DNA of 64,000 bases from the NCBI GenBank assembly GCA_025617745.1, contig CM046868.1, forward strand, positions 16,186,615 through 16,250,614, read 5' to 3'. The translations under genes were made by a program, and so were the position numbers. Below the pieces are notes generated by a model that was not told the origin of the DNA, searched no databases, and was given only the letters and a program-made list of their open reading frames with translations. Each line of letters opens with the position of its first letter. The stretch's first letter is position 1. This document shows positions 4,661 to 60,939 of the stretch, piece after piece. The DNA is from Heliocidaris erythrogramma. Taxonomy: Eukaryota > Echinodermata > Echinoidea > Camarodonta > Echinometridae.

Positions 4661-4669
4661 CGTCCGTGG

Positions 4670-4699
4670 GGTTGAGGCTATGTTGGCGTGATTTGGGCA
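4670..4699 (+). repeat. left terminal inverted repeat of the 5.8-kb element
   Basis: Thirty bases starting GGTTGAGGCTATG, ending TTTGGGCA. It is the reverse complement of 10472-10501 with one mismatch (position 21). It is directly preceded by the 9-bp duplication CGTCCGTGG. Confidence 0.88.
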
Positions 4700-5900
4700 C
4701 CCTCATTATTATTCATGAGCTCGGATTCCGCGCGCGCGCTCTCTTCCATAGAGATTGTACATGATGCATCGAGGTGCGTGAGAATACCTACCACAGCCAA
4801 TCCGCAGGTCCCCTAAAAGTGCGCTATTTTATTTCCAATTCTGCCTGACTATGAATACATAATGAGCAAGAACAGCCAGGAACATCTCATTTGCAAACTA
4901 TTGAATAGCCTACTTATCATTCACCAGTTGTCATGAGTTATACATCAAATAAAAGAAGATGGATCAGAGATTTGTGACCTGCTTTTATTGTGTTCAAAAT
5001 AAAAGACGAAATTGGTATAAAATGGTGTTCCTTTTATGACCAAAAATGGAAATTAAATGAAATATAAATCTGGCCAAATCTACCATAGTTTTATTGTGAG
5101 CCAGGGCAAATTTGACATGAGCGTAAAGGGCATTTTCTGTACTTTCCAAAGATTGAAATAACATTAATGTGCACTTCATGACAGGGTCAGGATCCAGCAA
5201 TATGTAACCGATGTACACACTTTGTCTTTAAAAAAGTCAATTCCAGCATTCTGATTGGTTACCACCACGCAAGATGTTTTCTCACAGCCAGGCAACAGCT
5301 ATGCGCATGTTTGCGCAAGGATGAAGCAACAGGTTGCGCAATGTTTCATTCAACGCGCACTTGGTTACGGATGGCTCGCTTGCCAATCACAGGGCTAAGA
5401 TTCTATGGTCTTGACCATGGTCTTGACAACGGATGATCTGCGGCTGAATATTGCTGGATCCTGACTCTGTCATAAATTTATGGATGATTTGAATGTAACG
5501 ATGAAAAAGATGAGATTCCAGCGCTTCCATACATATGTGTCTTGATGGCGGCTCATATACTTTTTATATGTCTTTTAACAACTTGAAATCTTGTGAAAAA
5601 AAGGCTTTTGTATGACTATTTCATCAGTTATTTTAAACATTTTCTGTTTAAAATTCTGACTAAAACAAAATATCCCTGTCTTGGTAAACTATTCATTTAT
5701 TTTTGCAGAAAGTCTAATGAGCACAGCATTAATATTTATTGAAGAGCATAACTTTAAAGATGACCATGCGATACAGCCGGCTGGGTGCAGGGAGAAAGTC
5801 CATTTCGGGCACTGGAAATAAAATGCGCGTTTTTTGCTCATTTGCATACGACCTGCGGTCTGACTGACCAGGACTTCGAATATTGGTTAGACAGTTAGTT

Positions 5901-8900
5901 TGGCGCGATTCCAGGATTATTGGCGTAATTTTGGCATTTCTTTGTTTTTACAATTGAAATCACTTAAAAGAATGGAAATAAAGGTGTCATATTGTGAGAT
6001 TCAATGTACAAAATGATATCCAACCCTTAAAATATCAATAAATGTAAACAGATAGAACTTTTCCGACTTTTCATTTTCTTCTTGTTTCATATTTGACAAA
6101 GTACATTAAGACTGGCGGGATTCCAGCATTATTGGCGTAATTTTGGCATTTCTTTGTTTTTACAATTGAAATCACCTAAAAGAATGGAAATAAAGGTGTC
6201 ATATTGTGAGATTCAATGTACAAAATGATATCCAACCCATAAGATATCGATAAATGTTTTTAAAAAAATAAAATCCGACTTTTCATTTTCTTCTTGTTTC
6301 ATATTTGACAAAGTACAGTAAGACTGGCGCGATTCCAGCATTATTGGCGTAATTTTGGCATTTCTTTGTTTTTACAATTGAAATCACCTAAAAGAATGGA
6401 TATAAAGGTGTCATATTGTGAGATTCAATGTACAAAATGATATCCAACCCATGAGATATCAATAAATGTAAACAGATAGAACTTTTCCGACTTTTCATTT
6501 TCTTCTTGTTTCATATTTGACAAAGTACATTAAGACTGGCGGGATTCCAGCATTATTGGCGTAATTTTGGCATTTCTTTGTTTTTACAATTGAAATCACC
6601 TAAAAGAATGGAAATAAAGGTGTCATATTGTGAGATTCAATGTACAAAATGATATCCAACCCATAAGATATCGATAAATGTTTTTAAAAAAATAAAATCC
6701 GACTTTTCATTTTCTTCTTGTTTCATATTTGACAAAGTACAGTAAGACTGGCGGGATTCCAGCATTATTGGCGTAATTTTGGCATTTCTTTGTTTTTACA
6801 ATTGAAATCACCTAAAAGAATGGAAATAAAGGTGTCATATTGTGAGATTCAATGTACAAAATGATATCCAACCCATAAGATATCGATAAATGTTTTTAAA
6901 AAAATAAAATCCGACTTTTCATTTTCTTCTTGTTTCATATTTGACAAAGTACAGTAAGACTGGCGCGATTCCAGCATTATTGGCGTAATTTTGGCATTTC
7001 TTTGTTTTTACAATTGAAATCACCTAAAAGAATGGATATAAAGGTGTCATATTGTGAGATTCAATGTACAAAATGATATCCAACCCATGAGATATCAATA
7101 AATGTAAACAGATAGAACTTTTCCGACTTTTCATTTTCTTCTTGTTTCATATTTGACAAAGTACAGTAAGACTGGCGTGATTCCAGCATTATTGGCGTAA
7201 TTTTGGCATTTCTTTGTTTTTACAATTGAAATCACCTAAAAGAATGGAAATAAAGGTGTCATATTGTGTTATTTAATGTACAAAATGATATCCAACCCAT
7301 AAGATATCGATAAATGTTTTTAAAAAAAAAAATTCCGACTTTTCATTTTCTTCTTGTTTCATATTTGACAAAGTACAGTGAGACTGGCGCGATTCCAGCA
7401 TTATTGGCGTAATTTTGGCATTTCTTTGTTTTTACAATTGGAATCACCTAAAAGAATGGAAATAAAGGTGTCATATTGTGAGATTTAATGTACAAAATGA
7501 TATCCAACCCATAAGATATCAATAAATGTAAACGAATAGAACTTTTCCGACTTTTCATTTTGTTATTGTTTCATATTTGACAAAGTACAGTAAGACTGGC
7601 GGGATTCCAGCATTATTGGCGTAATTTTGGCATTTCTTTGTTTTTACAATTGAAATCACCTAAAAGAATGGAAATAAAGGTGTCATATTGTGAGATTTAA
7701 TGTACAAAATGATATCCAACCCATAAGATATCAATAAATGTAAACGAATAGAACTTTTCCGACTTTTCATTTTGTTATTGTTTCATATTTGACAAAGTAC
7801 AGTAAGACTGGCGGGATTCCAGCATTATTGGCGTAATTTGGGCATTTCTTTGTTTTTACAATTGAAATCACCTAAAAGAATGGAAATAAAGGTGTCATAT
7901 TGTGAGATTTAATGTACAAAATGATATCCAACCCATAAGATATCGATAAATGTTTTTTAAAAAAAAATTCCGACTTTTCATTTTCTTCTTGTTTCATATT
8001 TGACAAAGTACAGTGAGACTGGCGCGATTCCAGGATTATTGGCGTAATTTTGGCATTTCTTTGTTTTTACAATTGAAATCACTTAAAAGAATGGAAATAA
8101 AGGTGTCATATTGTGAGATTCAATGTACAAAATGATATCCAACCCTTAAAATATCAATAAATGTAAACAGATAGAACTTTTCCGACTTTTCATTTTCTTC
8201 TTGTTTCATATTTGACAAAGTACAGTAAGACTGGCGGGATTCCAGCATTATTGGCGTAATTTTGGCATTTCTTTGTTTTTACAATTGAAATCACCTAAAA
8301 GAATGGAAATAAAGGTGTCATATTGTGAGATTCAATGTACAAAATGATATCCAACCCATAAGATATCGATAAATGTTTTTAAAAAAATAAAATCCGACTT
8401 TTCATTTTCTTCTTGTTTCATATTTGACAAAGTACAGTAAGACTGGCGCGATTCCAGCGTTATTGGCGTAATTTTGGCATTTCTTTGTTTTTACAATTGA
8501 AATCACCTAAAAGAATGGATATAAAGGTGTCATATTGTGAGATTCAATGTACAAAATGATATCCAACCCATGTGATATCAATAAATGTAAACAGATAGAA
8601 CTTTTCCGACTTTTCATTTTCTTCTTGTTTCATATTTGACAAAGTACAGTAAGACTGGCGTGATTCCAGCATTACTTGGCGTAATTTTGGCATTTCTTTG
8701 TTTTTACAATTGAAATCACCTAAAAGAATGGAAATAAAGGTGTCATATTGTGTTATTTAATGTACAAAATGATATCCAACCCATAAGATATCGATAAATG
8801 TTTTAAAAAAAAAAAATTCCGACTTTTCATTTTCTTCTTGTTTCATATTTGACAAAGTACAGTGAGACTGGCGCGATTCCAGCATTATTGGCGTAATTTT

Positions 8901-10390
8901 GGCATTTCTTTGTTTTTACAATTGGAATCACCTAAAAGAATGGAAATAAAGGTGTCATATTGTGAGATTTAATGTACAAAATGATATCCAACCCATAAGA
9001 TATCAATAAATGTAAACGAATAGAACTTTTCCGACTTTTCATTTTGTTATTGTTTCATATTTGACAAAGTACAGTAAGACTGGCGGGATTCCAGCATTAT
9101 TGGCGTAATTTTGGCATTTCTTTGTTTTTACAATTGAAATCACCTAAAAGAATGGAAATAAAGGTGTCATATTGTGAGATTTAATGTACAAAATGATATC
9201 CAACCCATAAGATATCAATAAATGTAAACGAATAGAACTTTTCCGACTTTTCATTTTGTTATTGTTTCATATTTGACAAAGTACAGTAAGACTGGCGGGA
9301 TTCCAGCATTATTGGCGTAATTTTGGCATTTCTTTGTTTTTACAATTGAAATCACCTAAAAGAATGGAAATAAAGGTGTCATATTGTGAGATTTAATGTA
9401 CAAAATGATATCCAACCCATAAGATATCGATAAATGTTTTTTAAAAAAAAATTCCGACTTTTCATTTTCTTCTTGTTTCATATTTGACAAAGTACAGTGA
9501 GACTGGCGCGATTCCAGCATTATTGGCGTAATTTTGGCATTTCTTTGTTTTTACAATTGGAATCACCTAAAAGAATGGAAATAAAGGTGTCATATTGTGA
9601 GATTTAATGTACAAAATGATATCCAACCCATAAGATATCAATAAATGTAAACGAATAGAACTTTTCCGACTTTTCATTTTGTTATTGTTTCATATTTGAC
9701 AAAGTACAGTAAGACTGGCGGGATTCCAGCATTATTGGCGTAATTTTGGCATTTCTTTGTTTTTACAATTGAAATCACCTAAAAGAATGGAAATAAAGGT
9801 GTCATATTGTGAGATTCAATGTACAAAATGATATCCAACCCATAAGATATCGATAAATGTTTTTAAAAAAATAAAATCCGACTTTTCATTTTCTTCTTGT
9901 TTCATATTTGACAAAGTACAGTAAGACTGGCGCGATTCCAGCATTATTGGCGTAATTTTGGCATTTCTTTGTTTTTACAATTGAAATCACCTAAAAGAAT
10001 GGAAATAAAGGTGTCATATTGTGAGATTCAATGTACAAAATGATATCCAACCCATAAGATATCGATAAATGTTTAAAAAAAAATAAAATCCGACCTTTCA
10101 TTTTCTTCTTGTTTCATATTTGACAAAGTACATTAAGACTGGCGGGATTCCAGCATTATTGGCGTAATTTTGGCATTTCTTTGTTTTTACAATTGAAATC
10201 ACCTAAAAGAATGGAAATAAAGGTGTCATATTGTGAGATTCAATGTACAAAATGATATCCAACCCATAAGATATCGATAAATGTTTAAAAAAAAATAAAA
10301 TCCGACTTTTCATTTTCTTCTTGTTTCATATTTGACAAAGTACAATGAGACTGGCGCGATTCCAGCATTATTGGCGTAATTTGGCATTTG
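5901..10390 (+). repeat. 212-bp tandem satellite, 21 full copies plus a partial
   Basis: Monomers start (at TGGCGNGATTCCAG) at 5901, 6113, 6325, 6537, 6749, 6961, 7173, 7385, 7597, 7809, 8020, 8232, 8444, 8656, 8869, 9081, 9293, 9504, 9716, 9928 and 10140, with a partial copy from 10352. Spacing is 211-213 bases. Copies differ at diagnostic sites: the base after TGGCG (C, G or T), GGAAATAAAG versus GGATATAAAG, and an A-rich versus AACAGATAGAAC segment. The composition is AT-rich with no ORF across monomers. A seven-monomer block is duplicated within the array. The array lies wholly between the inverted ends of the host element. Confidence 0.95.
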
Positions 10391-10471
10391 AGATCGAGAT
10401 CAGAGCGAGCGCGATTAAATTAGCGCGGCGCGCCCGTACTTATGAATATTCATAATTGCTCGTTCAATAGC

Positions 10472-10501
10472 TGCCCAAATGACGCCAACATAGCCTCAAC
10501 C
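10472..10501 (-). repeat. right terminal inverted repeat of the 5.8-kb element
   Basis: Mirror of 4670-4699, ending GCCTCAACC on the plus strand and followed directly by the second copy of the target duplication at 10502-10510. Confidence 0.88.
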
Positions 10502-10510
10502 CGTCCGTGG

Positions 10511-10763
10511 GCGGGGCTTTTTTAATTTTCTCATTTCAGGAAACTAGATTTGTATATTTACAAATTTGCAGATTTTGTTTTTAAAAAGCATGTAATTCAG
10601 TTGTATTATTATTGAGATAATGCTTTAATTTGTTTTCTAAAGAATATTTTAAGTTAATTGAATGTTTTGGATTTATACTTTATATAAAAATTCTTTAGAT
10701 ATAAAGATTGTAATGCTGAAATCAAGGACAGTATATTTTGGGCTCCTCTGATCTCAGATATGA
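10511..10763. other. spacer between two large TIR elements
   Basis: About 250 bases of AT-rich sequence without ORF or repeat signature. It separates the end of the satellite-bearing element from the next inverted-repeat element. Confidence 0.5.
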
Positions 10764-10860
10764 GGTAGAGACTATTTGAGCACCAAGTCGACCATTAATT
10801 CAAAACGTACGCGTAACGCACTAAATGAATATTCATGACCTAGTCCAGGCGACAGTAATC

Positions 10861-11369
10861 GCGAATTGGTGCTTATTATAGTGACTTGTTGCTCAGGTAA
10901 CGTGTGCTAAACCTTACGATGATTGTAGGAGTGATTATCTGTAAAATTTTGTTTAAAATTAACTTTATTTACGTCTCAATATTGTCTTAAACATCTAATT
11001 ATATAGACACTGACTTTGATTTGCATTGATTATAATCCTGATGACTGTTTTCAAACAAAATAGCGCATTGGTGCTCATTATAGTGACTTGGTGCTCATGA
11101 AACGTGTGCTAAACCCTACGAGGATTATAGGAGTGATTATCTGTAAAATTTTGTTTAAAATGAACTTTATTTACGTCTCAATATTGTCTTAAACATCTAA
11201 TTATCTAGACAATGACTTTGATTTGCATTGATTATAATCCTGATGACTGTTTTCAAACAAAATAGCGCATTGGTGCTCATTATAGTGACTTGGTGCTCAT
11301 GAAACGTGTTCTATCCCTATACGAGGATTGTAGAAATCATTATCTTGATTTTTTTGTTTCAAAATGAAC
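10861..11369 (+). repeat. left-arm ~202-bp tandem repeat, about 2.5 copies
   Basis: Copies begin at 10861, 11063 and 11265 with GCGMATTGGTGCT and share AACGTGTGCTAAACC and TTTACGTCTCAATATTG. The third copy is cut short at about 11369, where a poly-G MITE begins. Confidence 0.88.
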
Positions 11370-11414
11370 TAGTGGCGAGATTTATTTTCGCCAGACCTCA
11401 AAAATTCGCTCAGT

Positions 11415-11458
<44 letters not shown>

Positions 11459-11629
11459 GTTAATGGGGGCCCAGTTTCCCTCAGTAATTCTCTGACAAAC
11501 AAAACAAAAAATAAGGCTTTTCGTTCTAAAAGGAGGGGGCACGATCGAAAAAAGGGGCAGTTGGGCACAATGCATACTTTTCTTCCAAAGGGGGAGGGGG
11601 CACGGGCCCTCCCAGTAAATCCGCCACTG
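11370..11629. mobile_element. poly-G-bearing MITE with TGGCGGAT-type ends
   Basis: The left end TAGTGGCGAGATTTA and the right end TAAATCCGCCACTG are near-inverted. The interior holds a run of about 40 G and a sequence shared with about 46704-46955 (CAGTGAATAC/ATGCATAC..TTTTCTT and GGCACGGGCC words). It is inserted into a 202-bp monomer at AAAATGAACT. A clear target duplication was not found. The long proline/glycine ORFs here are homopolymer artefacts. Confidence 0.55.
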
Positions 11630-14546
11630 CTGCAATCAACCTCAGTTTTAGAAAAATGTCAACAAACAGAACAGTGACCTTAGAGGCCATAACTTTTTAT
11701 CTCATAATCCTAATTCAACTAAACTTGGATGTTCTGTTCAGAATGATATTCTCCATGATTTAAACTAACAAAAATATATTTCTATCAATTTTCGTTGCCA
11801 TATCCGTTATTCATGTAAATGTAGTTTTTAATAATTTTTTTAAAACAAATGTATTTTTATATCATTCCGTGTAAATATGAGTTAGATATAATAACCAGGC
11901 AGTTATGGTATTGTTTGTCAATCTAATACACCCAGATAAGATCAGGAGTGATTATTAATATTTCTTTTTATCTCCATTTGTTTAGTCGATTTCTCTCTAA
12001 TTGTGCCTAGAGATTTCTTTATTCTTGCAAACTGGAACAACCAATATTAGATTACTCATGTTGAACTTGAAAAAATGCTAATAATGAAATTATTTCTTTG
12101 TATATAATGACGCATTATACTTTAGTGGTATTTAACAAATTTATAAATTATACAATCTACCATTTTGATAATGTGATTTCTTTTTAAATCCAAAGTCGTA
12201 ACCTTAGTAGCTTCACACTTCACACTTTTAGGCTCAGTAATGAAACTGAAATGTGAAATATTCTATAACAAATTAGGCATTGCGCAGACTTTGTACTTTA
12301 GAATGCATGTCTTGCTGGTTATATTTTGTAGAGTAGTTTTTAGATATCACCGATTATATATTGCGATCTTTCAACAACAGAAATCTCTATCTTGATAACA
12401 GTATTTTATTTTATTTCATTTTCAGGAAAACAATATAACAATAACAGAGAATACAAAGTACAATAACAGAAGAAGGGAATCACAAAATAATATAGTAATA
12501 GTTCTGACCAATTAAAGTAATATCGTTTTTATGATGCTTGTCGAGACAATGGAATATTCAAGTAGAATTAATTACATTTACATGAGAAGAACATACACCT
12601 GTTATTGATATCAAATTTATTGAGTTGACAAAGAAGTATAAATACTTAATATAATATGTAAATATTAATTTATTGCCTGTGTTGTGTTTGTTACTTTTTA
12701 AAATTTATATGAAGATCATGCAGCCTATCATACAGAGGCGGCGCTCCCGGGGGGGGGGGGGGGGGGGGGCAGGGGACACAGTACCCCCACTTTTTCAAGT
12801 AACAAAAAAGTGCCCCTTTTCTTTTTTTAAAATCTAGAACCATGCTAAGACATAAACAATAATGTGTCGAAAATGATACTCGATATTGCATTAATCAGAA
12901 TGTAGCGGTATACTATTGTCTCAGCTCAGCTCAAAGTGGCATTTTCCGCATTTTGTTCACCCTTTGTAGGTGCCCTTTCCCCCTAAAGTGCCCCTTTTTG
13001 TTGGTGTGCCCACACCCACTTTGAAAGACGCTCCGCCGCCTCTGCTATCACCCACACTGGGAGTTACTGAAGTTCTGGATTCTGATCTTTACCTCCTATT
13101 TTGCTTTTTTTAATGTGTATATTGCGATATGATTTACATTGCATACAAGAATTATCATTTGATAAACATTTAAGAGTGCATATGGACGTCTATTGATGAC
13201 GTCTATATTGTTTACAAGTAATATAATTTGATAGTGCTGAACTCACTTTGCTTTTCAGATAAAATCTTAATTACATTCAAATGATTGCTAAAGTTTTGCA
13301 ACCATGGGCCTATTTCTATCTGTCAACCTCAAAACACATATAAATCTGACAAGATGATTTTGTGGTTTACAACGTGGAAAATATTATCCAGTGGATCCAA
13401 ACTTCTACATATCCATAATGATAATTATAGTGTCCAAAGCATATTATGCTAAGGCAGGCTACTAAAATAAGGCATTTTTAACACGTTAATTTTGTCATTT
13501 AGTATGCATGAATGTGTAAAATTATTTGACTATATAAATTCATTATGCAATACATAACATCATATTCTCTTTGTGTTCAGGCATTCAGTACTGGTATTTT
13601 TCGTATAGTCTTACCTCTTCTTTGCAAGTATTTTTTTTCTTCAATAGAATTAAATTAAATTTATTCCACATTCGATAAAAATGACTATGACAGAATACAA
13701 TTGGAAATATACCGAAATATTAATAGTAATAGAAATATGAAAAATTCAACAACAATGATAAGTACATATACCCCCCCCCCCCCACTGAGCGACTTTTCGA
13801 GAGCAAAATTTGACACACCTGCATTTGTGTGCCCCCTTATATCCTTAAATCCTAGATCAAATAAACAGAAAATATCTAAATGTGGAGGGACAAAGGCCAA
13901 GGGTCTAATATCAAAGGTTTGTCCCCAAACATATATAATATATAAGATATATTATTTAAGAGAATTACGGACAATTTACACAACACAACTTTTTATAAAC
14001 AAAGTTTTTAATAAACAAAGTGAAATTCGATGCTTTGGTGATGACAAGTTTGCTACAGCCAGTATAACCTATTTTAGGTCTGTGTAAATTATACATTACA
14101 TAAGAAATAATCATTATTTTACACTGTCTTGTAGAAATAATTATCTCAGCATGATTCATTCAACTTAAATTAAAAATTGGTTGCTCCAGTTGGAAAGAAT
14201 GAAGGTATCACGAAGCACCAAGAACAATAATAACGCCTAATGTCATTTGGGTGTATTAGATTTACAAACAATGATATAATTCCTTTGTTATTATATCTAA
14301 GTCATGCACATTAACTCTGAATCTCAGACTTTCAAAGTAATATCTATTTGAAAACTTACAAAAATGAAATGGAAAATGAACATTGAATAATAGTTGTCAA
14401 AGCAACTAAAAGTAACTTAAATATATCAATATTGTTCTAAAACATGTGGAATATCTTTCGGAACAGTATCCAAGTTTCATTGAATTGGGATTATGATGAA
14501 AAAAGTTACAGCATAGGTAAATCTTTGTGCGCTCAATGTTCACAAG
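11630..14546. other. central part of the foldback element, no gene
   Basis: AT-rich sequence without recognisable coding capacity. It holds the inverted pair 11880-11945 / 14240-14305 and a nested MITE at 12733-13044. A C-run lies near 13770-13784. No transposase motif was seen in the short ORFs. Confidence 0.5.
12733..13044. mobile_element. nested hAT-like MITE with a G-run
   Basis: The ends CAGAGGCGGCG and CGCCGCCTCTG are inverted. Flanking octamers CTATCATA (12725-12732) and CTATCACC (13045-13052) agree at six of eight positions, as expected for an aged 8-bp hAT target duplication. The interior contains a run of about 20 G and repeated 'GTGCCCCTTT' words. Confidence 0.6.
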
Positions 14547-14836
14547 GTTCTAGGACACCTACCCCCTGGACAACCACCACGGATAACCACCCCCGGATAA
14601 CCACCCCTAGGATAACCACCCTCTGGGAAAACTACCCCCTAGGACAACCACCCCATAGGGCAACCACCCTCTAGGACGACTACCCCCTGGACAATGACCC
14701 TCTAGGTTGATCCCCCCACTAACTACCCCATAGGGCAACTACCCTCGCGGACAACCACCCCCAGACAACTACCCCTAGGACAACCACCCTCTAGGACAAC
14801 TCACTACCCCCGGACAACCACCCTCTATAGGAAAAG
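14547..14836 (+). repeat. degenerate minisatellite, GGACAACCACCCCC-type
   Basis: Around 18-20 imperfect units of 14-17 bases built on (T)AGGACAACCACCCTC. The strand is strongly C-rich. It lies within the foldback element. No protein is implied. Confidence 0.75.
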
Positions 14837-15039
14837 TATCCCAAATATGACTTAACATCACGTTGAACATTATTGTGCTAGTTTGCTACGCTCGCTCGAC
14901 AAAATAGAATTAATATGGCTTTTAGCATAATTTCTAGAGGGTGGTTATCCTAGGGGGACCCCTCTTTGATACCCTACTATAAAGATTATGCACGCGTTTA
15001 TTTAGCTACAAGGCACGATATCGTGCTATAACACATATT

Positions 15040-16530
15040 ATGAAATTATAAGCACACGTTTCTTGAACTCAAACTCCAAGGCTCTATCAGGCACCGATGC
15101 ACGAAGTTGTTGAAAAACAGTCATAAGGTTATAATCAATGCAAATCAGTTAGTGTTTGGATGAAGTGATGTTAGAGACAATATTGAGATGTAAATAAGTT
15201 CATATAGAAACACATATTTTCAAGACAATCACTAGCGTATAGGGGGGGGGGGGGGGATAGAATAGACCGCTTCTGTAATGTATACAAATGAGCACCTAGT
15301 GACGAGCTATTTCATTAACATATGGATCTCCCTCCAAACAGTTTCCGCTAATCATTTCCTCGCACGTTTTGCCCCCCCCCCCCCCCCCCGTGACGCCACT
15401 GAAGATAATTAGTCCTATAACCCCTGCATAGGGTTTATAGCACACGTTTCAGTGAGCACCAATTAGGCACTATAATGAGCACCAATGCGCGATTTTGTTT
15501 GAAAACAGTCATCATGATGGTAATCAATGAAAATCAAACTCATTGTCAAGATGAATGGATGTTAAAGACAAATAAAGTTCATTTGAAACAAAATTTTCAA
15601 GATAATCATTTCTACAATCCTCGTATAGGGTTTAGCACACGTTTCCTGAGCACCCGGGGCACCAATGCACTATAATGAGACCCAATGCGCGATTTTGTTT
15701 GAAAACAGTCATCAAGATTGTAATCAATGAAAATCAAACTCAGTTACTCAGTGTCTAGATGAATAGATGTTAAAAAACAATGTTGAGACGTAAATAAAGT
15801 TCATTTGAAACAAAATTCTACAGATATATCATTCTTACAATCCTCGTAGGGTTTAGCACACGTTTCATGAGCACCAAGTCACTATGAGCACCAGTGCGCG
15901 ATTTTGCTTGTAACCATGCAGTCATCCAGACTATAATCAATGGAATCAAAGTCAGTGTCTGGATAAATAGATGTGAAAGACAATATTGAGACGTAAATAA
16001 AGTTCATTTTAAACAAAATTTTACAGATAATCATTCCTCCAATCCTCGTAGGGTTTAGCACACGTTTAATGAGCACCAAGTCACTAATGAGCACCAATGC
16101 GCGATTTTGTTTGAAAACAGTCATCAAGATTATAACCAATGAAAACCAAAGTCAGTGTCTAGATGAATAGATGTTAAAGACAATATTGAGACGTAAATAA
16201 AGTTCATTTGAAACAAAATTTTACAGATAATCATTCTTACAATCCTCGTAGGGTTTAGCACACGTTTCATGAGCACCAAGTCACGAGCACCAATGCGCGA
16301 TTTTGCTTGTAACCAGTCATCCAGACTCTAATCAATGAAATAAAAGTCAGTGTCTGGATAAATAGATGTTAAAGACAATATTGAGACGTAAATAAAGTTC
16401 ATTTGAAACAAAATTCTACAGATATATCATTCTTACAACCCTCGTACGGTATAGCACACGTTTCATGAGCACCAAGTCACTATAATGAGCACCAATGCGC
16501 GATTTTGTTTGAAAACAGTCATCAAGATTG
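15040..16530 (-). repeat. right-arm ~200-bp tandem repeats in reverse orientation
   Basis: Copies are marked by GCGCGATTTTGTTTG at about 15487, 15687, 15896, 16101, 16296 and 16497, with more diverged material upstream interrupted by G/C runs (15242-15256, 15372-15389). They are the reverse complement of the left-arm unit (TTTAGCACACGTTT, ATTGAGACGTAAATAAAG). Confidence 0.85.
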
Positions 16531-16643
16531 CCCACCTTCGATGCCCACTAATAGCCACATGTAATAAGAAGGCGCGCGCGCGCGTGTTGCATGAACCTCA
16601 TGAATAATAATGTGTCCGACTTGGTGCTCAAATAGTCTCTACC

Positions 16644-25646: not shown

Positions 25647-28600
25647 GTCTCATTGAGGCCGGTACATAATCCATGTGAAAACTGATGAAAAGTGTACCTT
25701 TTCAGTAATAGGCCCATTCTGGTTTATGCGTTCAGGTTATCAAAAAAAGAAAAAATCAAGAAAAAGGGTATCAAATTCAGAGACTGATAAGAAGATCCGC
25801 GGAAGGGGGGGGGGATAGTTCGGTAATGTGTTCCAAATTAGGTTAAATTTCTTTTACGGTTACTTTTTGGCTAAAAAGAAGTCTATGATGATGATGTAGG
25901 CCTAAATAGGATGTAAAATAACAAGCAAGATATAAAAGTGCCGTTAATGGTATAAAAATATGGGATAGACAGGTTTCTCTGTTTAGGGTATCAAAATCTG
26001 CCCCTACTTCAATCTGCTTTTTAAAGGAGAATTAAGCCCTGATTACAAATTTACTTATATTGGAAGGTGTAATATATTCCTACTTATTGGCCTAAATCAT
26101 TTTCTAATAAGATATCAGAAAAGGGTATAAATAAAGATATTCCAACACCCGGTATCGTCTCCTACTCATTTACATGGGGGCTGCCATTTTCTTGCTGATT
26201 TGGAGTTGGGGGGGGGGGGGGGGGGGAGAATGTCTCATTGAGGCCGGTACATAATCCATGTGAAAACTGATGAAAAGTGTACCTTTTCAGTAATAGGCCC
26301 ATTCTGGTTTATGCGTTCAGGTTATCAAAAAAAGAAAAAATCAAGAAAAAGGATCAAATTCAGAGACTGATAAGACTTTTCAAGTCCATTATCCGAAAGC
26401 AGGTGAATGCATAGTTTGCCGCCATAGATGCTCAGGGAAGAAGCATCCATAAAATTTGAATTAATTCGCTCCGTCTCATACGTCCAGTATCGAGAAAATA
26501 GATCTCTATTAAGCGAATATCGATTTTCAACAGAAATATATAGGAAATCTTCAGTTTAAAAATAAATTGACATATCTATTCTATATTTTTAATCTCAAAT
26601 GAGTTTTTAATTTTGAAAAAGGCAATTGAGCATTTGGATTAAGAAAATCTTCTTGTACACATAAACAAAATGGCAGCCCCCATGTGCTGCTAGCAGACGA
26701 TACATATTGCTAGCAGATGGTAAATTTTGCTCAGAAAAGATTGATTCGTATCAATCTCGTATATTTTGACGCGAAGCCATATAGTCTAACAAGTAGGAAT
26801 AAATAACACCTTTGAACACTATCGTCTTTATTTTTGAGCGTAATTCTCCTTTAATTCAGCAAGTGATTTACGCGGATAATGTACATCCCGGGGGGGGGGG
26901 GGGGGGGGGGTCTTCGCGATCGAATTGGATCGATTCAGGTGCCTGTAAACTTTTCTGCCTTTTATTTGTGAAAATACGGCTCCAGGAAGTCTGATTTATG
27001 AAAGCATGCCATTACTTTCTAAATTGTACTTTCAACATTTTTTTTTTTTGGGGGGGGGGACTGTTTCTTAGTTAACTTAATTCTTTCTGTGCTACAATTT
27101 CTTTTATGTGGGGGTTGATGTTCGATGAGACAGGGTGAATGGGAGGAACATGTAACTGTTAAATGTAAAAAAAAAAAAAAAAAAGGAAGGCGATTTCTGC
27201 CACTTCATATTTTAGGACTCTTTATTTCAATTTAATTTATTTCTACTTTTTACTTATATCATGGAAGCAAATACTAGGTAAACTTCCTACGGGGGGGGGG
27301 GGGGGGGTCTTCGCGATCGATTTAGATCGATTCAGGTGCCTGTAAACTTTTCTGCCTTTTATTTGTGAAAATACGGCTCCAGGAAGTCTGATTTATGAAA
27401 GCATGCCATTACTTTCTAAATTGTACTTTCAACATTTTTTTTTTGGGGGGGGGGGGGCTGTTTCTTAGTTAACTTAATTCTTTCTGTGCTACAATTTCTT
27501 TTATGTGGGGGTTGATGTTCGATGAGACAGGGTGAATGGGAGGAACATGTAACTGTTAAATGTAAAAAAAAAAAAAAAAAAAGGAAGGGGATTTCTGCCA
27601 CTTCATATTTTAGGACTCTTTATTTCTTTATTTAATTTATTTCTACTTTTTACTTATATCATGGAAGCAAATACTAGGTAAACTTCCTTTTGCGACAGCC
27701 TCCCAAAATAAAAACAATATATGGAGTTAGGGTTGGGTTTAGAGTTTAGAGTTTAACTTTAGGTTTAGGGTTTATGTAACCGCACACTTGGGTGGCTGTC
27801 GCATAAATCATTCCTATTATCAACCACTAAATTGACATGAATTGGGAAAATGATCATCAAACTGTTGGAAACATGTTATTGTATATCGCCTCAAATATAT
27901 TATTCATTCCCTTGTGACAGACTAAACCGATCTGTAGACATCATTCGTGGAGGGGAGGTGTAGCAGATCACGTCACTTAGGAATATCGGTTGCCACGGTG
28001 TAAAGAAGGAGCCCCTCCCCCACAACCAAACTAACCAAAATTTCCTTCGAAAATATTTCCACTATGATATTAGTACGTATAGGATATTAATCCCGTCACA
28101 CCAGCGCGAGGGTAGTAGGGAAAAGTCATTCCGTCGGTCCTCCCAAGACCTATATAAGGGGGCCATAATCCCCCTGAAAAAAAAATGACAAATTTTTTTT
28201 CCCCTTATTTTTGCATCCTTTGCAAGGGACGTACTGCTAATCGGGTCCGATCGCTATTCATAAGGTCCGCTATTCATAGAAAACTGCTATTCATTTAACA
28301 CGCGTTATGAATAGCGGTCCTTATGAACTGATTATGAATAGTGGTCCTTATGAATGGAGGTCCTTATGAATAGCGAGGTAATTTGTCTATGGTTTGCTCG
28401 CTATTCATAAGAACCGCTATTCATACAAAACTGCTATTCATACAAAACTGCTATTCATTTAGTCACGCGTTATGGATAGCGGTCCTTATGAATAAGTGGT
28501 CCTTATGACTAGCGAGGTTGCCCCCCGCTAATTATGCACGTTATGTTTTCATGGACTTAATTTCTCTGAGTATTAAACCACAGAAACATGGCAAGATCAA

Positions 28601-38001: not shown

Positions 38002-41000
38002 TCATACATGTACATGATCAATATCAGTCATGGAGGCTCTTGATGTTGTCTTCGGCAGCATTCTCTCTTTCTCTTGGTCGTGCTTCCTCCGATGGTATAA
38101 GAACTTGCAGACGAAGATGTTGACGATGAGGATGATGACCACGGCGATGACCAGGGCCCAGCCTACGATCAAGAGGTACTTGTCGTCAGAAAGGAAGAGC
38201 GGTGATTTGCCTGAGGAACCATTTGGAGTATGTTTGTCTGCATAATATATGAAAAGGAATGGTGAAAAAGATGGTTTGGTTTTTATCCAAATTGTTTCAT
38301 CACAGTTTAATAAAGTGTTATCTCATAATTATATGAATGGGTTGATGTATCCTTTGGATAACGACATAATTATATATCCACACCCTGCAATCTTTTGTTT
38401 TCTCTCCTTCTCTCTCGCAATCCACTTCTTCCTGCCTCTACTTTCCGGTGCCAGGTAAAAATGCCAGAGGAAAAAATGCCAGAGGTAAAAATGCCAGAGG
38501 TAAAAATGCCAGAGGTAAAAATGCCAGAGGTAAAAATGCCAGAGGTAAAAATGCCAGAGGTAAAAATGCCAGAGGAAAAAATGCCAGAGGTAAAAATGCC
38601 AGAGGAAAAAATGCCAGAGTTAAACACGCGATGGGTGACGTCAGGAACAAAAAGAAAAGAGGCAAAATATGCCAGCTGCATACTAGGAGAATATAGGTGA
38701 AAAATCAAGATGAAATATAGAGAAGGTCTAGAAGCAGACCTGACATCTGCTGATTTTACTTTTTAGACTACATATATTTGGTTTGACCGCGTTGGACTCT
38801 GGACTCCAGATCGTAGACCCGGCTTTTTTTTAATCGACGTACGACTTCTTTATCCCGAATGGAATTTGGAACAAGAAGGAAGTCTGCAACTGAATTTTAG
38901 GTTTAGAGAAGGGAAAGGAGGTATGCAAAAATGACATCACCCCTTATGTGGGACAGTCCTTTTGTGGGTAAATATGAACCTTTTCGGAATTATGAACATT
39001 TGGATAAACGAACCTTCGGAATAATGCAACAAATGTTCGGAATTTTGAACCCCCAGGCATGGGAAATTAGTGTTTTGGAAATAGGAACCTTCGGAATAAC
39101 GAGATGCCCCCGCATCATGATACTAACTGTATAACTTAACGACACAATACCTGTACCAGTAATAAAATAACTTGCAGGCCACGAGGAACGTCTTGCAAAG
39201 TGGAGGGGCTTAGTGGGGGGGGGGGGGGGGGGGGCTGCGTGTATACCACATTTTTGCACGTTTGCACGTGTTTACTGAAAAAAGTAGAGGCTGCAGCCCC
39301 CAGCCCCCCCCCCCCCCCGCCCGGTTCCGCGGTCCATGACTTGTACCAAATGATCTTGACTAGTTTGCTTTTCGATATCTGTACTTGTACCCCGGATTTG
39401 TACCTACATGCGCCTTTTTTTTTCTTTTTCAGTTCTCCCTTCTTCAGCAAATGTACAGGCCGTCACACAAACATCGAGCGTTACAGCCTCGTCAACATTA
39501 ATACGGGGGGGGGGGGGGGGGGGGCTCATGCACATTAAGTTATAAACAAGATGCAGATATATTCAAACTGAATTAAATGTTAAAAAAAGATTACGTTTGC
39601 ACATCGTGAGACAACTGATTAACTCTCTTCAATTATTCTTCACCACGATGAACCTCTTCCAATCTAAAGATTATAATATTGAAGTGTTTAAAAAAAAAAG
39701 GGTCGTCAACTGAAAGCGAGTGGCAAACAATACATGCATGCTATATCCGGGCCGGGGTGGGGGGGGGGGGGGGGGGGGGTACTAGCATTTTTTACCTCTG
39801 GCATTTTTACCTCTGGCATTTTTACCTCTGGCATTTTTACCTCTGGCATTTTTACCTCTGGCATTTTTTCCTCTGGCATTTTTACCTCTGGCATTTTTAC
39901 CTCTGGCATTTTTTCCTCTGGCATTTTTACCACTGGCATTTTTACCTCTGGCATTTTTACCTCTGGCATTTTTACACCGAACCTATTTTCCTCCCTCCTT
40001 CCTCTATTCTTTTTCCTCTTCCACTTTCTAACTCCCTCCTCCAGATTCCAATCTCATCCTCTCTCCAGTTCTCTCACCCTCTTTCTTTCTCGCCCCCCCT
40101 CTCTCTATTTCTCCTACTATTTCCCAATCATTCCATTTTCCTCTTTACAATACTCTAACCCTTTTCTTCACACCATTCACATCATGATGATCTAAAACAT
40201 GATAAAATAATTATATGTGTTAATGGTAATCCTTACCCGAACTTTGTGATACAGATGGGCTAGTATCCGTCCATTGCCTCTTTGCTGGAAGTTCACTAAC
40301 ATCTACAGGGTCTGGAAAATTAAAGAATGTGAAGCAATTATTATCATACTTATCGAAAAATGCTGTCATATTGAATTATTTCATATCGTATAAAGCTGTA
40401 AAATTAGGTTTTACTACCCTTGATCTTTATCTTTTCATAAATTTGGCATTGGAAACTTAGTGGCCCCAAAGTGCAACCTTTATTTTATGATTTCAGAGGA
40501 AAATACACAAATATCAATATTAGGATTTTCAAAACTATATTTTTCTAAATAAAGGTATCTATCAATCAATTCCTCGGACAGCAATTCGTTTGTTAGAAGC
40601 TACCAAGCCTTGTCCCATATAAACAAGGTCTTAAATAGATTTTTATGATCAATAATTAACGAATATATGCAGTGCTCATTAAATTTTGATACCCCGTGAC
40701 TGTCCAAATGATCCAAGTTATTGGGAATTATGAGGATGGTGTGTTTAATTGGATCTGTTCGCACTGTATAACATTTTTTTTTCTCTGATGTTTATTTTCG
40801 TTTCGTTTTGTTTTGTGTTGTATTGTTTCGTTTGGTGATGACATTTATGGAAAATACAGATAAAGCAAATTACTTGTTGCATCGGCCCGTTTCGTTGTTG
40901 CTTCCTCGAATCGCGGGTCCGGGACACAGGCCTTCCTACCGTTGTCAAAAATATCGGTTGCTTTTATACACGACGTTGTACACTGGGTATCGGCCATTCT

Positions 41001-44000: not shown

Positions 44001-47000
44001 CTCATGATCAAGGGTTGTTTCTGATGACCTACAATGCTTTTATACTTGATGTTGCCCTTGCCTCCGCGACTTTCAAGAAAATGAACCCTGTAGGCCTATA
44101 GTAAATTTAATAGAGTTAAAATTTCATAAATTCCTATTCAGTACAGTACTACCCTGTTGGAAAGAATGAATATGATGTGGCCCCTACCATGCACCAATAA
44201 TGTTACGTTTGGTACGGTGACAGTACGGCAAACTGTAGGCTTAGAGACAACTTTATTTTTAAAAAATTGTACTGTAGGCCTACTGTGTGGTCTTGGAACC
44301 CTTTCACAGTGCTTCTTACTGGGGAAACACAGTGTGGCCAATAACTGAATTTTGAAAACTGTGTTCACAGAGTGTTTAGCCTACTACGTGGGACACTCAG
44401 GTTCTATAGAGGCATTTATTTTACGCAAGCGCAATTTTGATTCTGACGATATAGATCACCCAAAGAATCTCGACTCCTTTACAAATTTTTCTTTCCTTTC
44501 TAGGTCCTGCAACGAATCTTCACACCATTACTCGGATGTTCCAGATGCCTAGCGAAATCTCAGGGGGTACGGCCCGCGTGATCCCAAACTACTGCCTCGT
44601 TGAGCAACCAAATCTCAAACCCAAAGGCTTCACAACTTCCAGCTTGATCAGGTGCGCTGTATCCTGCGCAGACGACTTGGAATGTGAGGCTTTTAATTTT
44701 TTACGCCGTCCTAAGAAGACAGAGGCATCGAATTCTTCAACAACCCTGAAGTTGAAGGGCACTTGTCAGAAGCTGACGTTCTCTACGAAGAATATCAAAA
44801 CAGGTTTTTTCATGACTCCCATAGATGGTTGTAATTATTATGTGCTTGATTGCCGGAAGTGAAACCGTCGACCCCAGATCATCTTGGACAATTATAGTCT
44901 TATAACATAGATCAAAGCAACTAGGTGTGGTGTTTTTTTTTTTTAACCAGCATACTGTAATTGATTTGTCATTCAAACCTTCACCCTGCTTGTGTATATC
45001 GTTTGTTACATAATTTCAATATTTAATATACAGATGTGTTTTTCTTACTCATTCTTAAATAGACCTCTGATTTATCCCAGCGATTGACGCAATATTATGA
45101 TTTAACAAGATCAAAACTACTTTCGAAAAATCAACTGAAGGCAATTTCAATAGCCCTGTCTATCACCTATAGAAATTTACAATCGCCTATTACGTAATCC
45201 GAACCTGATTTTTATGGGCAGTACAATAGGCCTTTGAAATTTCCCTTGAGTTTATTTTTCGAAAGTAGTTTTGATTGTGTTATTTACAAATTTTTGTTGA
45301 TAGTTGAAAACTATTTCATTATTCTCACTCAATCTCTAAATATTTCAAACCAATGATGCATGTTTATAATTGTCATGACTGTTCGGTAATATCTCATATT
45401 TGTGTTCCTCGTTCATGCTACCATGGTAAATTAATGATTCGTGATTCTTGACTCATGCGAGCCGGTGTTCATTGGCTCATATCATGAAGCTGTAGCTTCA
45501 TGCTCATATCGTGCAAATAATGACGAACCCAAACATCAGACGTTTCCCTCGCAACACCTAGGTCATTAAAGGTTGTACAAAGCCGAGAACAAAACTTATC
45601 AAAAGAAAGTTTCAAAGCATACAGGATACACCGGTAGTGACGTATGCACTTATATTGAATAGGATGCCAACTTTTGATCTTAGGCTGTCGACCTTTTTCA
45701 TGACTAATTCCACGCACTAAATTAAAAAAAAGTAGACAGATAACGCGTCCTGTCATTACAGAAGAGAGCCTTGTGGTTGATATTCCTGCTTTTGTTTCTC
45801 CTTTTCTTTCTTTCAACTGGGACACATCTATCATTAAAAAGAGCCGAGGAGGGGCGTGCAAACAAGAAAACTATACAACGCCAAAGAAAATATATTTATA
45901 TATTTATGGTAACTTACATGTTTATAATAATAATTTAGACTCGTTGATTTAGTTATAGGGTAAAACAAGTTCATTTGTAAGCACAGGAAAAGAATAGTAT
46001 ATGTTGCCGATTTTAGAAAGGATCCCATGTTTAAGTGCTAATTTTGACCGTATGATTTTAATGGTAACATTTTATGAAGTCTAGGCACACCTCTTTTGAA
46101 TGCCTATCAATATTATCTCTTTTCATCGATGTTTGCAATTAAAATTCTATAGTCCTTTTCGCTATCACAATCCTCCTTTTATATTCAGCCACGCAAAATA
46201 AGGCCAAGTTACGTGTTGTAAAGATACGTTATTTGTGATTATCAAGGTACATGAACTTCCAAATAAGGCATTCGATAGGCTTAATACAATTGACCCCCAA
46301 ATCGACAGGTGTGGTTCTATTTTCTTTTAGATCATACCGTAATTAATTTGTGCTATACATTCTACATATCCAAACGATCTAGAATATACTTTAGATTCAT
46401 AATAACATTTAGATATTATCATGTAAAGATTCAAACAAATAGCAAAGATATACCTACGTCAATTGACGTCAATGTCGTTGTGTATACACCTATCCAGACA
46501 ATAGAACAAATAGTGGCAGATTTTTCTGGTATAGAATTCTATCAATAAAATATGACCGAATGCACAGCGTTTAAAAACAGTTTTGGGAACAGTCTATCAA
46601 TTCAGACGTTTAATTGCAAGAACAACGTGAAGACGATGTACATTTTTTAAAGATCAAGATGTCAACGAAAACCTGAAATAACAGTGGGGGGGGGGGGGGG
46701 GGAATGGCGAGAATTTTTTCGCCAACCCTCCAATAGTCGCTCAGTGTGTGTGTGTGTGGGGGGGGGGGGGGGCGGGGGTTCAGATCTTATTGGGTCCGGT
46801 TTTCCTCCATAATTCTCTGATAAGCAAACAAAAAAAAAAGGTATCAGTTCTAAAAGGGGGCACAATCCAAAAGTGGGCACAGTGAATACTTTTCTTTCAA
46901 AGGGGGGGGGGGGAGGCACGGGCCGGGATTCCCCCCCCCCCTAAGACCGCCACTGCCCGATAACATTTTTTTATGGTCAAAGTTGTCAGGGGGCAGTCTG

Positions 47001-60073: not shown

Positions 60074-60435
60074 TTAGTTTAGCTCATAAAAACTGCAACC
60101 ATCAATTTGCGTCATTGAAAAAGCCTCAGTTATATTCTTCAGGCTATACAGCTTCTGACAAGTTCCCGGTAATCGTGATGACGTTGAAGACGACAGCGAC
60201 GACGGCGGCGATGAACTCGGCACAGTATCATGACGTAAGAAATTGAAAGCTTCACATTCCGTGTCAACTACGCAGGCCGCAGCGCATCGGATCAAGCTAA
60301 TGACCGTAAAGCCTTCGGGTTGAAGATCGGGCAGTTCAACGAGGCAGTGGTCTGGCAGCACGCGGGACGTATCGCCTGAGATATCGCTGGACATCTGGAA
60401 TCTCCGAGTTATGCTGTATAGATTAGTACCAGCCC
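60074..60435 (-). CDS. terminal exon of a paralogous lectin-type gene (PAN/apple-like domain)
   Basis: A minus-strand exon beginning after a TTTTTCAG acceptor, phase 1, encoding 119 residues to a TAA stop. It matches the last exon of the lectin at 44504-44862 along its length: [59 protein letters not shown]. The acceptor phase and position are also the same. A longer Ser/Pro stretch (SSSPPSSLSSS) replaces part of the Lys/Thr linker. The C-terminal LDC cysteine is missing (it ends YELN). The rest of the gene, expected at higher coordinates, was not found before the window end, and a decayed retrotransposon lies in that direction. It could be a real gene whose other exons lie outside, or an orphan pseudo-exon. 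Confidence 0.7.
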
Positions 60436-60939
60436 CTGAAAAATGATAGATGAGGAATCTGAGTAAAGCTTGGATACAGTAGAACCTTCGTTTCTTTAAG
60501 ATCAACTTTTCAACTTAGCAATATAATTTACTTCTTTTGATGATGTATTTCATTAAATTATTACACCGATTATGCTTTTTATTACCTTTATAACGTTTTA
60601 AACTAAATGTAAAAGTCATCATGCAGGGCAATAAATGGAGAAAAAATCAAATCAATAGTGTATATACAATATGTCCCCCCCCCCCCCAAAAAAAAAAATA
60701 CAATCCGACTTTCAGCATCAGTAGCTTTCAAAATTGTGAGTTAATCAGAATGTTTCGAGATTGTGATACTCTAACTAATGATCTGTGTTCATGATAGATG
60801 ACCGGCGAGGGATCGAAGCCAGTGGCGTATCTAGGGATTATGGCGCCCGGGGCAAACAATGAAGTTACCCCCCCCCCCCCCCCCTTCTCGAGTGTCCAAA
60901 CGTTATTGTACAAGCGAGGGAGAACTTTCCACTAATACC
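60436..60939. other. intron/flank with homopolymer-bearing repeat remnants
   Basis: C-runs at about 60675-60687 and 60869-60884. CAGTGGCGTATCTAGGGATT at about 60822-60841 is the start of a poly-C MITE relative of the CAGTGGCGG family. No exon seen. Confidence 0.5.

What the first reader, a model, noticed from the sequence alone, without database searches (positions are those of the whole stretch)
5901..16643. In both large elements the tandem monomer contains a piece of the element's own terminal repeat
In the first element each 212-bp monomer carries TTGGCGTAATTTTGGCA against TTGGCGTGATTTGGGCA in the TIR (15/17). In the second, the ~200-bp monomers carry GAGCACCAAGTC, identical to positions 15-26 of its TIR. 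Two unrelated arrays each sharing TIR sequence suggests that the arrays are multiplied subterminal transposase-binding sites, a possible titration or recruitment device.
Basis: partly seen in the sequence, partly recalled or inferred. Interest (0 to 1): 0.85.

Follow-up and report, generated by a model that had tools for sequence, protein, structure and literature searches.

The report
Transposon arrays multiplying their end motif
Two related families of small jumping genes in an animal genome are largely built of tandem repeats, each repeat holding two copies of a short sequence found just inside the element's own ends; the repeats probably gather the enzyme that moves the element, and new copies sometimes land right beside old ones.

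Summary
Element 1 (window 4670-10501) is one of about 100 copies of a young non-autonomous transposon with 30-bp inverted ends and 9-bp target duplications. All 22 copies read carry the motif-bearing 212-bp array. Of 84 left-right end pairs, 81 are at most 7.1 kb long, and 65 of those 81 fit 80+212n. Element 2 (10764-16643) belongs to a second family whose ends are homologous to element 1's, so the elements are kin. Their monomers share no detectable sequence, yet each carries its own family's inner TIR motif. In both the match starts at TIR position 14, omits the outermost 13 bp, and recurs as a doublet 20 bp apart (298/301 and 49/51 cases). Chance is unlikely: 9 and 8 of 4000 shuffles reach the score for family 1, 2 and 2 of 4000 for family 2; cross-family matches are background. 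Binding is inferred; no transposase partner was found. A new clue favours recruitment: five pairs of family-1 copies lie 2-50 bp apart (0.0006 expected), without kilobase-scale clustering. Tetris and Galileo of Drosophila are direct precedents, so this is a new variant of a known kind.

The parts
4661..4669 (.). Left 9-bp target duplication CGTCCGTGG of element 1
   Evidence: 9/9 match with 10502-10510
4670..4699 (+). Left TIR of element 1: 13 outer bases plus inner motif (4683-4699)
   Evidence: 103 exact copies of this 30-mer in the genome
4793..5869 (.). Nested unrelated 1,077-bp repeat, absent from the other 21 copies read
   Evidence: about 99% identical copies elsewhere, 40 scored of 1298 candidates
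5901..10389 (+). Array of 212-bp monomers of element 1; each holds a doublet of the inner TIR motif 20 bp apart
10472..10501 (-). Right TIR of element 1
   Evidence: 109 exact copies in the genome
10502..10510 (.). Right 9-bp target duplication of element 1
10764..10790 (+). Left TIR of element 2 (end type A); inner motif at 10777-10789
10857..11370 (-). Left array of element 2 (~202-bp monomers), motif on the minus strand
15570..16529 (+). Right array of element 2 (~200-bp monomers), inverted relative to the left array; degenerate units upstream from about 15450
16617..16643 (-). Right TIR of element 2 (end type B); inner motif at 16618-16630

Best explanation
Both elements are non-autonomous cut-and-paste DNA transposons of two sister families that make 9-bp target duplications. 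Their ends have two parts: 13 outermost bases that are similar in both families, then a family-specific inner motif, probably the transposase-binding site. In each family a doublet of the inner motif, two copies 20 bp (about two DNA turns) apart, came to lie in a ~200-bp unit that was amplified into arrays. The arrays most likely work as a recruitment platform: they concentrate transposase near the ends, help the ends to pair, and can capture incoming complexes so that new copies land beside residents. Shown: ends, target duplications, shared motif, doublet spacing, lack of homology between the arrays, side-by-side copies. Inferred: binding, transposase type (9-bp duplications suggest Mutator-like), recruitment, selection.
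For: TIR-to-monomer match beyond shuffles in both families and only to the own family's TIR. It starts at TIR offset 13 in all four ends compared and leaves out the outer bases. Doublet spacing is 20 bp in 298 of 301 family-1 and 49 of 51 family-2 cases. Ends are homologous, monomers not. All 22 family-1 copies read have the array; motif exact in 240 of 242 monomers cut at an anchor outside it. 9-bp duplications: 11 of 22 perfect, 6 with 8/9, 2 with 7/9, 3 without. Five neighbour pairs at 2-50 bp, 0.0006 expected; 7 within 100 kb in all, 1.0 expected. Galileo repeats bind the transposase THAP domain in vitro (PMC3688188, passages).
Against: No transposase was found near listed ends. Monomers are young, and other blocks are nearly as invariant as the motif, so selection on it is not shown. 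Family 1's match alone is moderate (15/17). The array motif points the same way as the left TIR in family 1 but against the adjacent TIR in family 2, so no single geometry holds. Two of 30 family-2 ends read (L050, L051) lack the motif within 1.5 kb. Only one of the five neighbour pairs was read in letters.
Confidence: 0.5

Rival explanations
1. By-product: a TIR fragment was copied inward by faulty gap repair or template switching and then amplified by unequal exchange. The shared motif marks the array's origin and has no present function.
For: Arrays vary freely in length (n about 3 to 33) and reshuffle: monomer divergence is 4.9% within and 5.5% between elements, and 45 of 179 monomers have their nearest relative in their own element. 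Tetris authors also propose a TIR duplication as origin, though with a function (PMC4079207, section 19).
Against: It does not predict the same 20-bp doublet in two families with non-homologous monomers, nor the exclusion of the outer 13 bp in both, nor side-by-side insertions.
Confidence: 0.28
2. Titration: the arrays soak up transposase and dampen transposition of the autonomous partner or of the family.
For: Array doublets far outnumber ends: the 81 shorter pairs alone sum to about 1113 units against 162 ends.
Against: Array-bearing copies are the very ones that multiplied recently; a titrating array should burden its carrier. Side-by-side insertions point to attraction.
Confidence: 0.12
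3. Target preference only: the transposase favours DNA next to a TIR, or paired copies move together, which explains the side-by-side copies; the arrays play no part in it.
For: The one pair read shows three versions of one 9-bp target (TTTTGCGAC, ATTTGCGAC, TTTTGGGAC) around two copies (L084). Gaps of 2-50 bp lie at the ends, not in the arrays.
Against: It leaves the doublet arrays unexplained.
Confidence: 0.07
4. Chance similarity of AT-rich satellites to TIRs.
For: Family 1's 15/17 match alone is moderate: 9 and 8 of 4000 shuffles reach its score.
Against: Two families, cross-family controls at background, same start position, 20-bp doublets.
Confidence: 0.03

Closest known systems
Tetris foldback transposon and its TIR-220 repeats, Drosophila virilis (PMC4079207; section 19 and passages read)
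   Same: Non-autonomous; ~220-bp tandem repeats share a 37-bp stretch (~80%) with the terminal domain; authors suggest multiplied transposase sites.
   Different: Repeats lie within both TIRs. Here family 1 has one central array in one orientation; two sister families with non-homologous monomers; 20-bp doublets; the outer 13 bp are left out; side-by-side copies.
Galileo, P superfamily, Drosophila (PMC3688188; abstract and passages seen)
   Same: Extra transposase-binding sites inside tandem repeats of long TIRs, shown in vitro by EMSA.
   Different: [quoted passage not shown] here the motif starts 14 bp from the end, target duplications are 9 bp, and no transposase is known.
Muta1 and other mosquito MULEs (PMC5225508; passages seen); Tm1, Mutator/Foldback (PMC3169594; passages seen)
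   Same: 8-9 bp or most often 9-bp target duplications; short terminal motif followed by subterminal tandem repeats; non-autonomous derivatives with varying repeat number.
   Different: Those repeats are 9-15 bp units; here ~200-bp monomers hold two motif copies each.
Tandem-repeat-bearing MITEs and TE-related satellites of bivalves (search listing and starts of abstracts only)
   Same: Mobile elements linked to satellite-like arrays.
   Different: I saw no statement there on monomers carrying the element's own TIR motif; the full texts were not read.

Membership tests
Mutator-like (MULE) superfamily | 8-10 bp, mostly 9-bp, target duplications | tested here: met
   Family 1: 11 of 22 perfect 9-bp, 8 more with 7-8 of 9. 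Family 2: 2 of 9 pairs perfect, 1 with 7/9.
Mutator-like (MULE) superfamily | MULE transposase in an element with the same ends | tested here: inconclusive
   31 MULE-domain hits; nearest listed family-1 end is 41 kb away. 100 of 103 left and 100 of 109 right ends were listed; family-2 ends (100 of 175 listed) compared by eye only.
Mutator-like (MULE) superfamily | Long TIRs over 100 bp (typical, not strict) | tested here: not met
   E1 ends match over 30 bp with one difference, then diverge; E2 A and B ends over about 27 bp.
Foldback-type elements | Tandem repeats in inverted orientation at both ends | tested here: met
   Element 2: arms 10881-11290 and 15465-16529 are inverted.
Foldback-type elements (element 1) | Tandem repeats in inverted orientation at both ends | tested here: not met
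   Element 1 has one array in one orientation between short TIRs.
Tetris/Galileo-like repeat arrays with transposase sites | Monomer contains TIR sequence | tested here: met
Tetris/Galileo-like repeat arrays with transposase sites | Transposase binds the repeat | not testable with these tools
   No cognate transposase found; needs a binding assay.

The most novel reading that the evidence does not exclude
The array is a self-landing platform: transposase bound to array doublets captures incoming transposition complexes, so that copies insert within tens of bases of a resident end and build side-by-side clusters. This would be short-range self-targeting driven by a satellite that the element itself carries, arisen in parallel in two sister families with non-homologous monomers.
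Probability: 0.22. Interest if true: 0.78.

Novelty: new variant of a known kind. Interest (0 to 1): 0.6.

Why it matters
Why satellite-sized arrays ride inside small DNA transposons is an open question. Here two sister families with homologous ends but non-homologous arrays give a natural replicate: in both, the same part of the TIR, and only that part, is multiplied, with the same doublet spacing. If the arrays bind transposase, they are selected transposition enhancers and a route from mobile element to satellite DNA. The side-by-side insertions make recruitment directly testable. Tetris and Galileo already established the general idea, so it is not a new kind of system.

Tried and rejected
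Without result: TIR patterns in IMG/VR (one hit, L001, whose surroundings show no TIR structure; none for family 2). The window's reverse transcriptase ORF in phage records. Pfam scan of four window ORFs: one RVT_1 only. MULE and FLYWCH searches for the partner; Merlin-type PF12762 was asked but did not complete. A third family with the same end design: none among the 80 matched strings printed of 159 matches. The two TIR sequences as text in papers: none.

Rejected: the extra 1,077 bp of the window copy as a relic of an autonomous element (it is a separate abundant repeat). A giant 28.8-kb family-2 element at C10: 15 sampled pieces show family-2 array and interior plus coding pieces that look like retrotransposons. 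The 17.6- and 21.3-kb family-1 spans as autonomous copies: of 8 sampled pieces one is family-1 array and one looks like reverse transcriptase; the rest show no clear coding sequence. A lower limit on array length as proof of function: no pair is below n of about 3, but by my own rough estimate (no call) hardly any would be expected.

Limits and dropped rows: 100 of 103 left and 100 of 109 right ends listed; 32 of the 200 stayed unpaired; 100 of 175 family-2 ends. Column statistics use the 179 of 242 monomers that are exactly 212 bp. One of the five neighbour pairs uses a variant left end; without it four remain. The number of copies (104) is my assumption from the end counts. No homology search beyond this genome was possible (no relatives held). 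Statements on prior art rest on searches.
Full report
What was checked. The window lies in a 1.06-Gb, 26-contig genome that the tools hold. Its repeat style suggested an echinoderm to me (recalled, not tested).

Family 1. A pattern covering TIR and array motif has 861 + 782 matches in the genome and none for the reversed control. There are 103 exact left and 109 exact right ends, 100 of each listed. The 200 listed ends form 84 left-right pairs, with 32 ends left over. 81 pairs are 718 to 7085 bp; 65 of the 81 fall within 0.15 unit of size 80+212n, against 24 expected, with median n of 12. Three spans are longer (14.6, 17.6 and 21.3 kb). In the 22 copies read (20 fetched stretches, one holding two copies, plus the window) the ends are nearly identical and every copy has the array with 5 to 28 motif units. 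Target duplications are 9 bp: 11 of 22 perfect, 6 with 8 of 9, 2 with 7 of 9, 3 without. The copies read consist of ends and array (plus the nested repeat in the window), so the family must move in trans. Arrays reshuffle: mean monomer divergence inside an element is 4.9%, between elements 5.5%, and 45 of 179 monomers have their nearest relative in their own element.

Family 2. 175 ends match the 24-base TIR with up to one mismatch, 100 listed. Ends are of two types, A and B; the window copy is A/B with inverted arrays at its two ends. Of 30 ends read, 27 have motif doublets, one (L049) runs into an assembly gap, and two (L050, L051) have none within 1.5 kb. Of nine end pairs read for target duplications, two have perfect 9-bp ones, one has 7 of 9, four sit inside a larger inverted structure, and two have none. 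The window copy has no exact duplication at its ends; AGATATGA occurs just left of it and about 10 bp to its right (by eye).

Relation of the two. E1-left and E2-B ends are homologous (score 54, shuffle maximum 28): ten of the 13 outermost bases agree, and both have ATTATTATTCATGAGCT and a CGCGCG tract further in. E1-right against E2-A is weak (30 against 28). The monomers are not detectably homologous (27-29, shuffle mean 28). So the elements are kin, while the arrays are independent or have diverged beyond recognition.

The shared motif. When the outer 53 bp of each end are scanned against the family's monomer, the best match starts at TIR offset 13 in all four ends. In family 1 it is 15/17, reached by 9 and 8 of 4000 dinucleotide shuffles; in family 2 it is 13/13, reached by 2 and 2 of 4000. 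In 204 natural segments of the window the scores are reached 0, 1, 0 and 0 times, and matches to the other family's TIR are at background. The second-best match in each monomer is a second copy on the same strand. Its spacing is 20 bp in 298 of 301 family-1 cases and 49 of 51 family-2 cases; in the one family-2 monomer used for the shuffle test it happens to be 18 bp. A same-strand doublet as good occurred in 0 of 4000 shuffles in each family, with the caveat that the motif window was chosen after the fact. In family 1 the motif is exact in 240 of 242 monomers cut at an anchor outside it. The longest nearly invariant stretch of the monomer (50 bp) covers most of the doublet; other blocks are nearly as invariant, so selection on the motif is suggested, not shown.

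Side-by-side copies. Sorting the listed family-1 ends shows five cases in which one copy ends and another begins 2, 9, 17, 28 and 50 bp further on. About 0.0006 are expected for 104 copies (my assumed number). The next gap is 77 kb, and within 100 kb there are seven in all (the five included) against 1.0 expected. Orientations are opposite in two cases and equal in three, and partners differ in length, which argues against simple duplication of one insertion. The pair read in letters (L084) shows TTTTGCGAC - copy - ATTTGCGAC - copy - TTTTGGGAC, three versions of one 9-bp target. One of the five cases uses a variant end. I read this as capture of incoming complexes by resident copies; a preference for target DNA beside a TIR, or movement of paired copies, remains possible.

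Partner. Of 31 MULE-domain hits the nearest to a listed family-1 end is 41 kb away; none of 49 FLYWCH hits falls in a listed element (compared by eye). One MULE with a long open frame (L091) has no such ends in the 6 kb read. The long spans sampled contain other insertions, not a visible partner. The superfamily is therefore inferred from the length of the target duplication alone.

Mechanism. Most likely the ends are bipartite, outer bases for cutting and the inner motif for binding, and the inner motif was multiplied as 20-bp doublets that gather transposase. Two helical turns would put two subunits on one face of the DNA (inference). Recruitment is preferred to titration because the array-bearing copies are the ones that multiplied recently and because copies lie beside copies. 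A functionless by-product is a serious rival.

Known precedents. Tetris TIR-220 repeats share 37 bp with the terminal domain, and the authors suggested extra transposase sites (PMC4079207, section 19 read; passages). Galileo repeats hold sites bound by the THAP domain in vitro (PMC3688188, abstract and passages). Mosquito MULEs and Tm1 have subterminal tandem repeats and 8-9 bp or mostly 9-bp duplications (PMC5225508 and PMC3169594, passages). The concept is known. New here, as far as these searches go: the natural replicate in sister families, the exclusion of the outer 13 bp, the fixed 20-bp doublet, the single central array of family 1, and the side-by-side copies.

Noticed in passing
G000 C3:20734845/20734855, C7:23731671/23731674, C8:19119557/19119575, C10:13966577/13966606, C12:38970133/38970184: Family-1 copies lie side by side with gaps of 9, 2, 17, 28 and 50 bp, far beyond chance; only the C3 pair was read in letters (L084).
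   Followed up: partly
L042, L043, L044, L052, L053, L060, L061, L065, L066: Several family-2 copies have the same outward flank (...tcattgacatcgac) and a 21-22-bp minisatellite on each side read, inverted between their two ends; they sit in a larger inverted composite whose outer ends were not found.
   Followed up: partly
window 10502-10763: Elements 1 and 2 are only 262 bp apart here; one other cross-family pair lies at 4.1 kb. Expected within 300 bp is 0.012, but this window was picked for holding both.
   Followed up: partly
window 4793-5869: A 1,077-bp repeat, about 99% identical to many copies elsewhere (40 scored of 1298 candidates), is nested in element 1.
   Followed up: partly
window 11372-11632 and 12731-13044: Two inverted-ended insertions with long G tracts inside element 2, hAT-like in look (recalled, not tested).
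   Followed up: no
window 44455-44862 (+) and 60074-60514 (-): Two open frames that look alike by eye (…SLIRCA…), no Pfam match at the default threshold.
   Followed up: no
window 38453-38624 and 39789-39975: Two arrays of what seems the same 15-bp unit in opposite orientations, about 1.2 kb apart (by eye).
   Followed up: no
window 26894-27688: A 397-bp tandem duplication, 97% matches, with a G tract in the unit.
   Followed up: no
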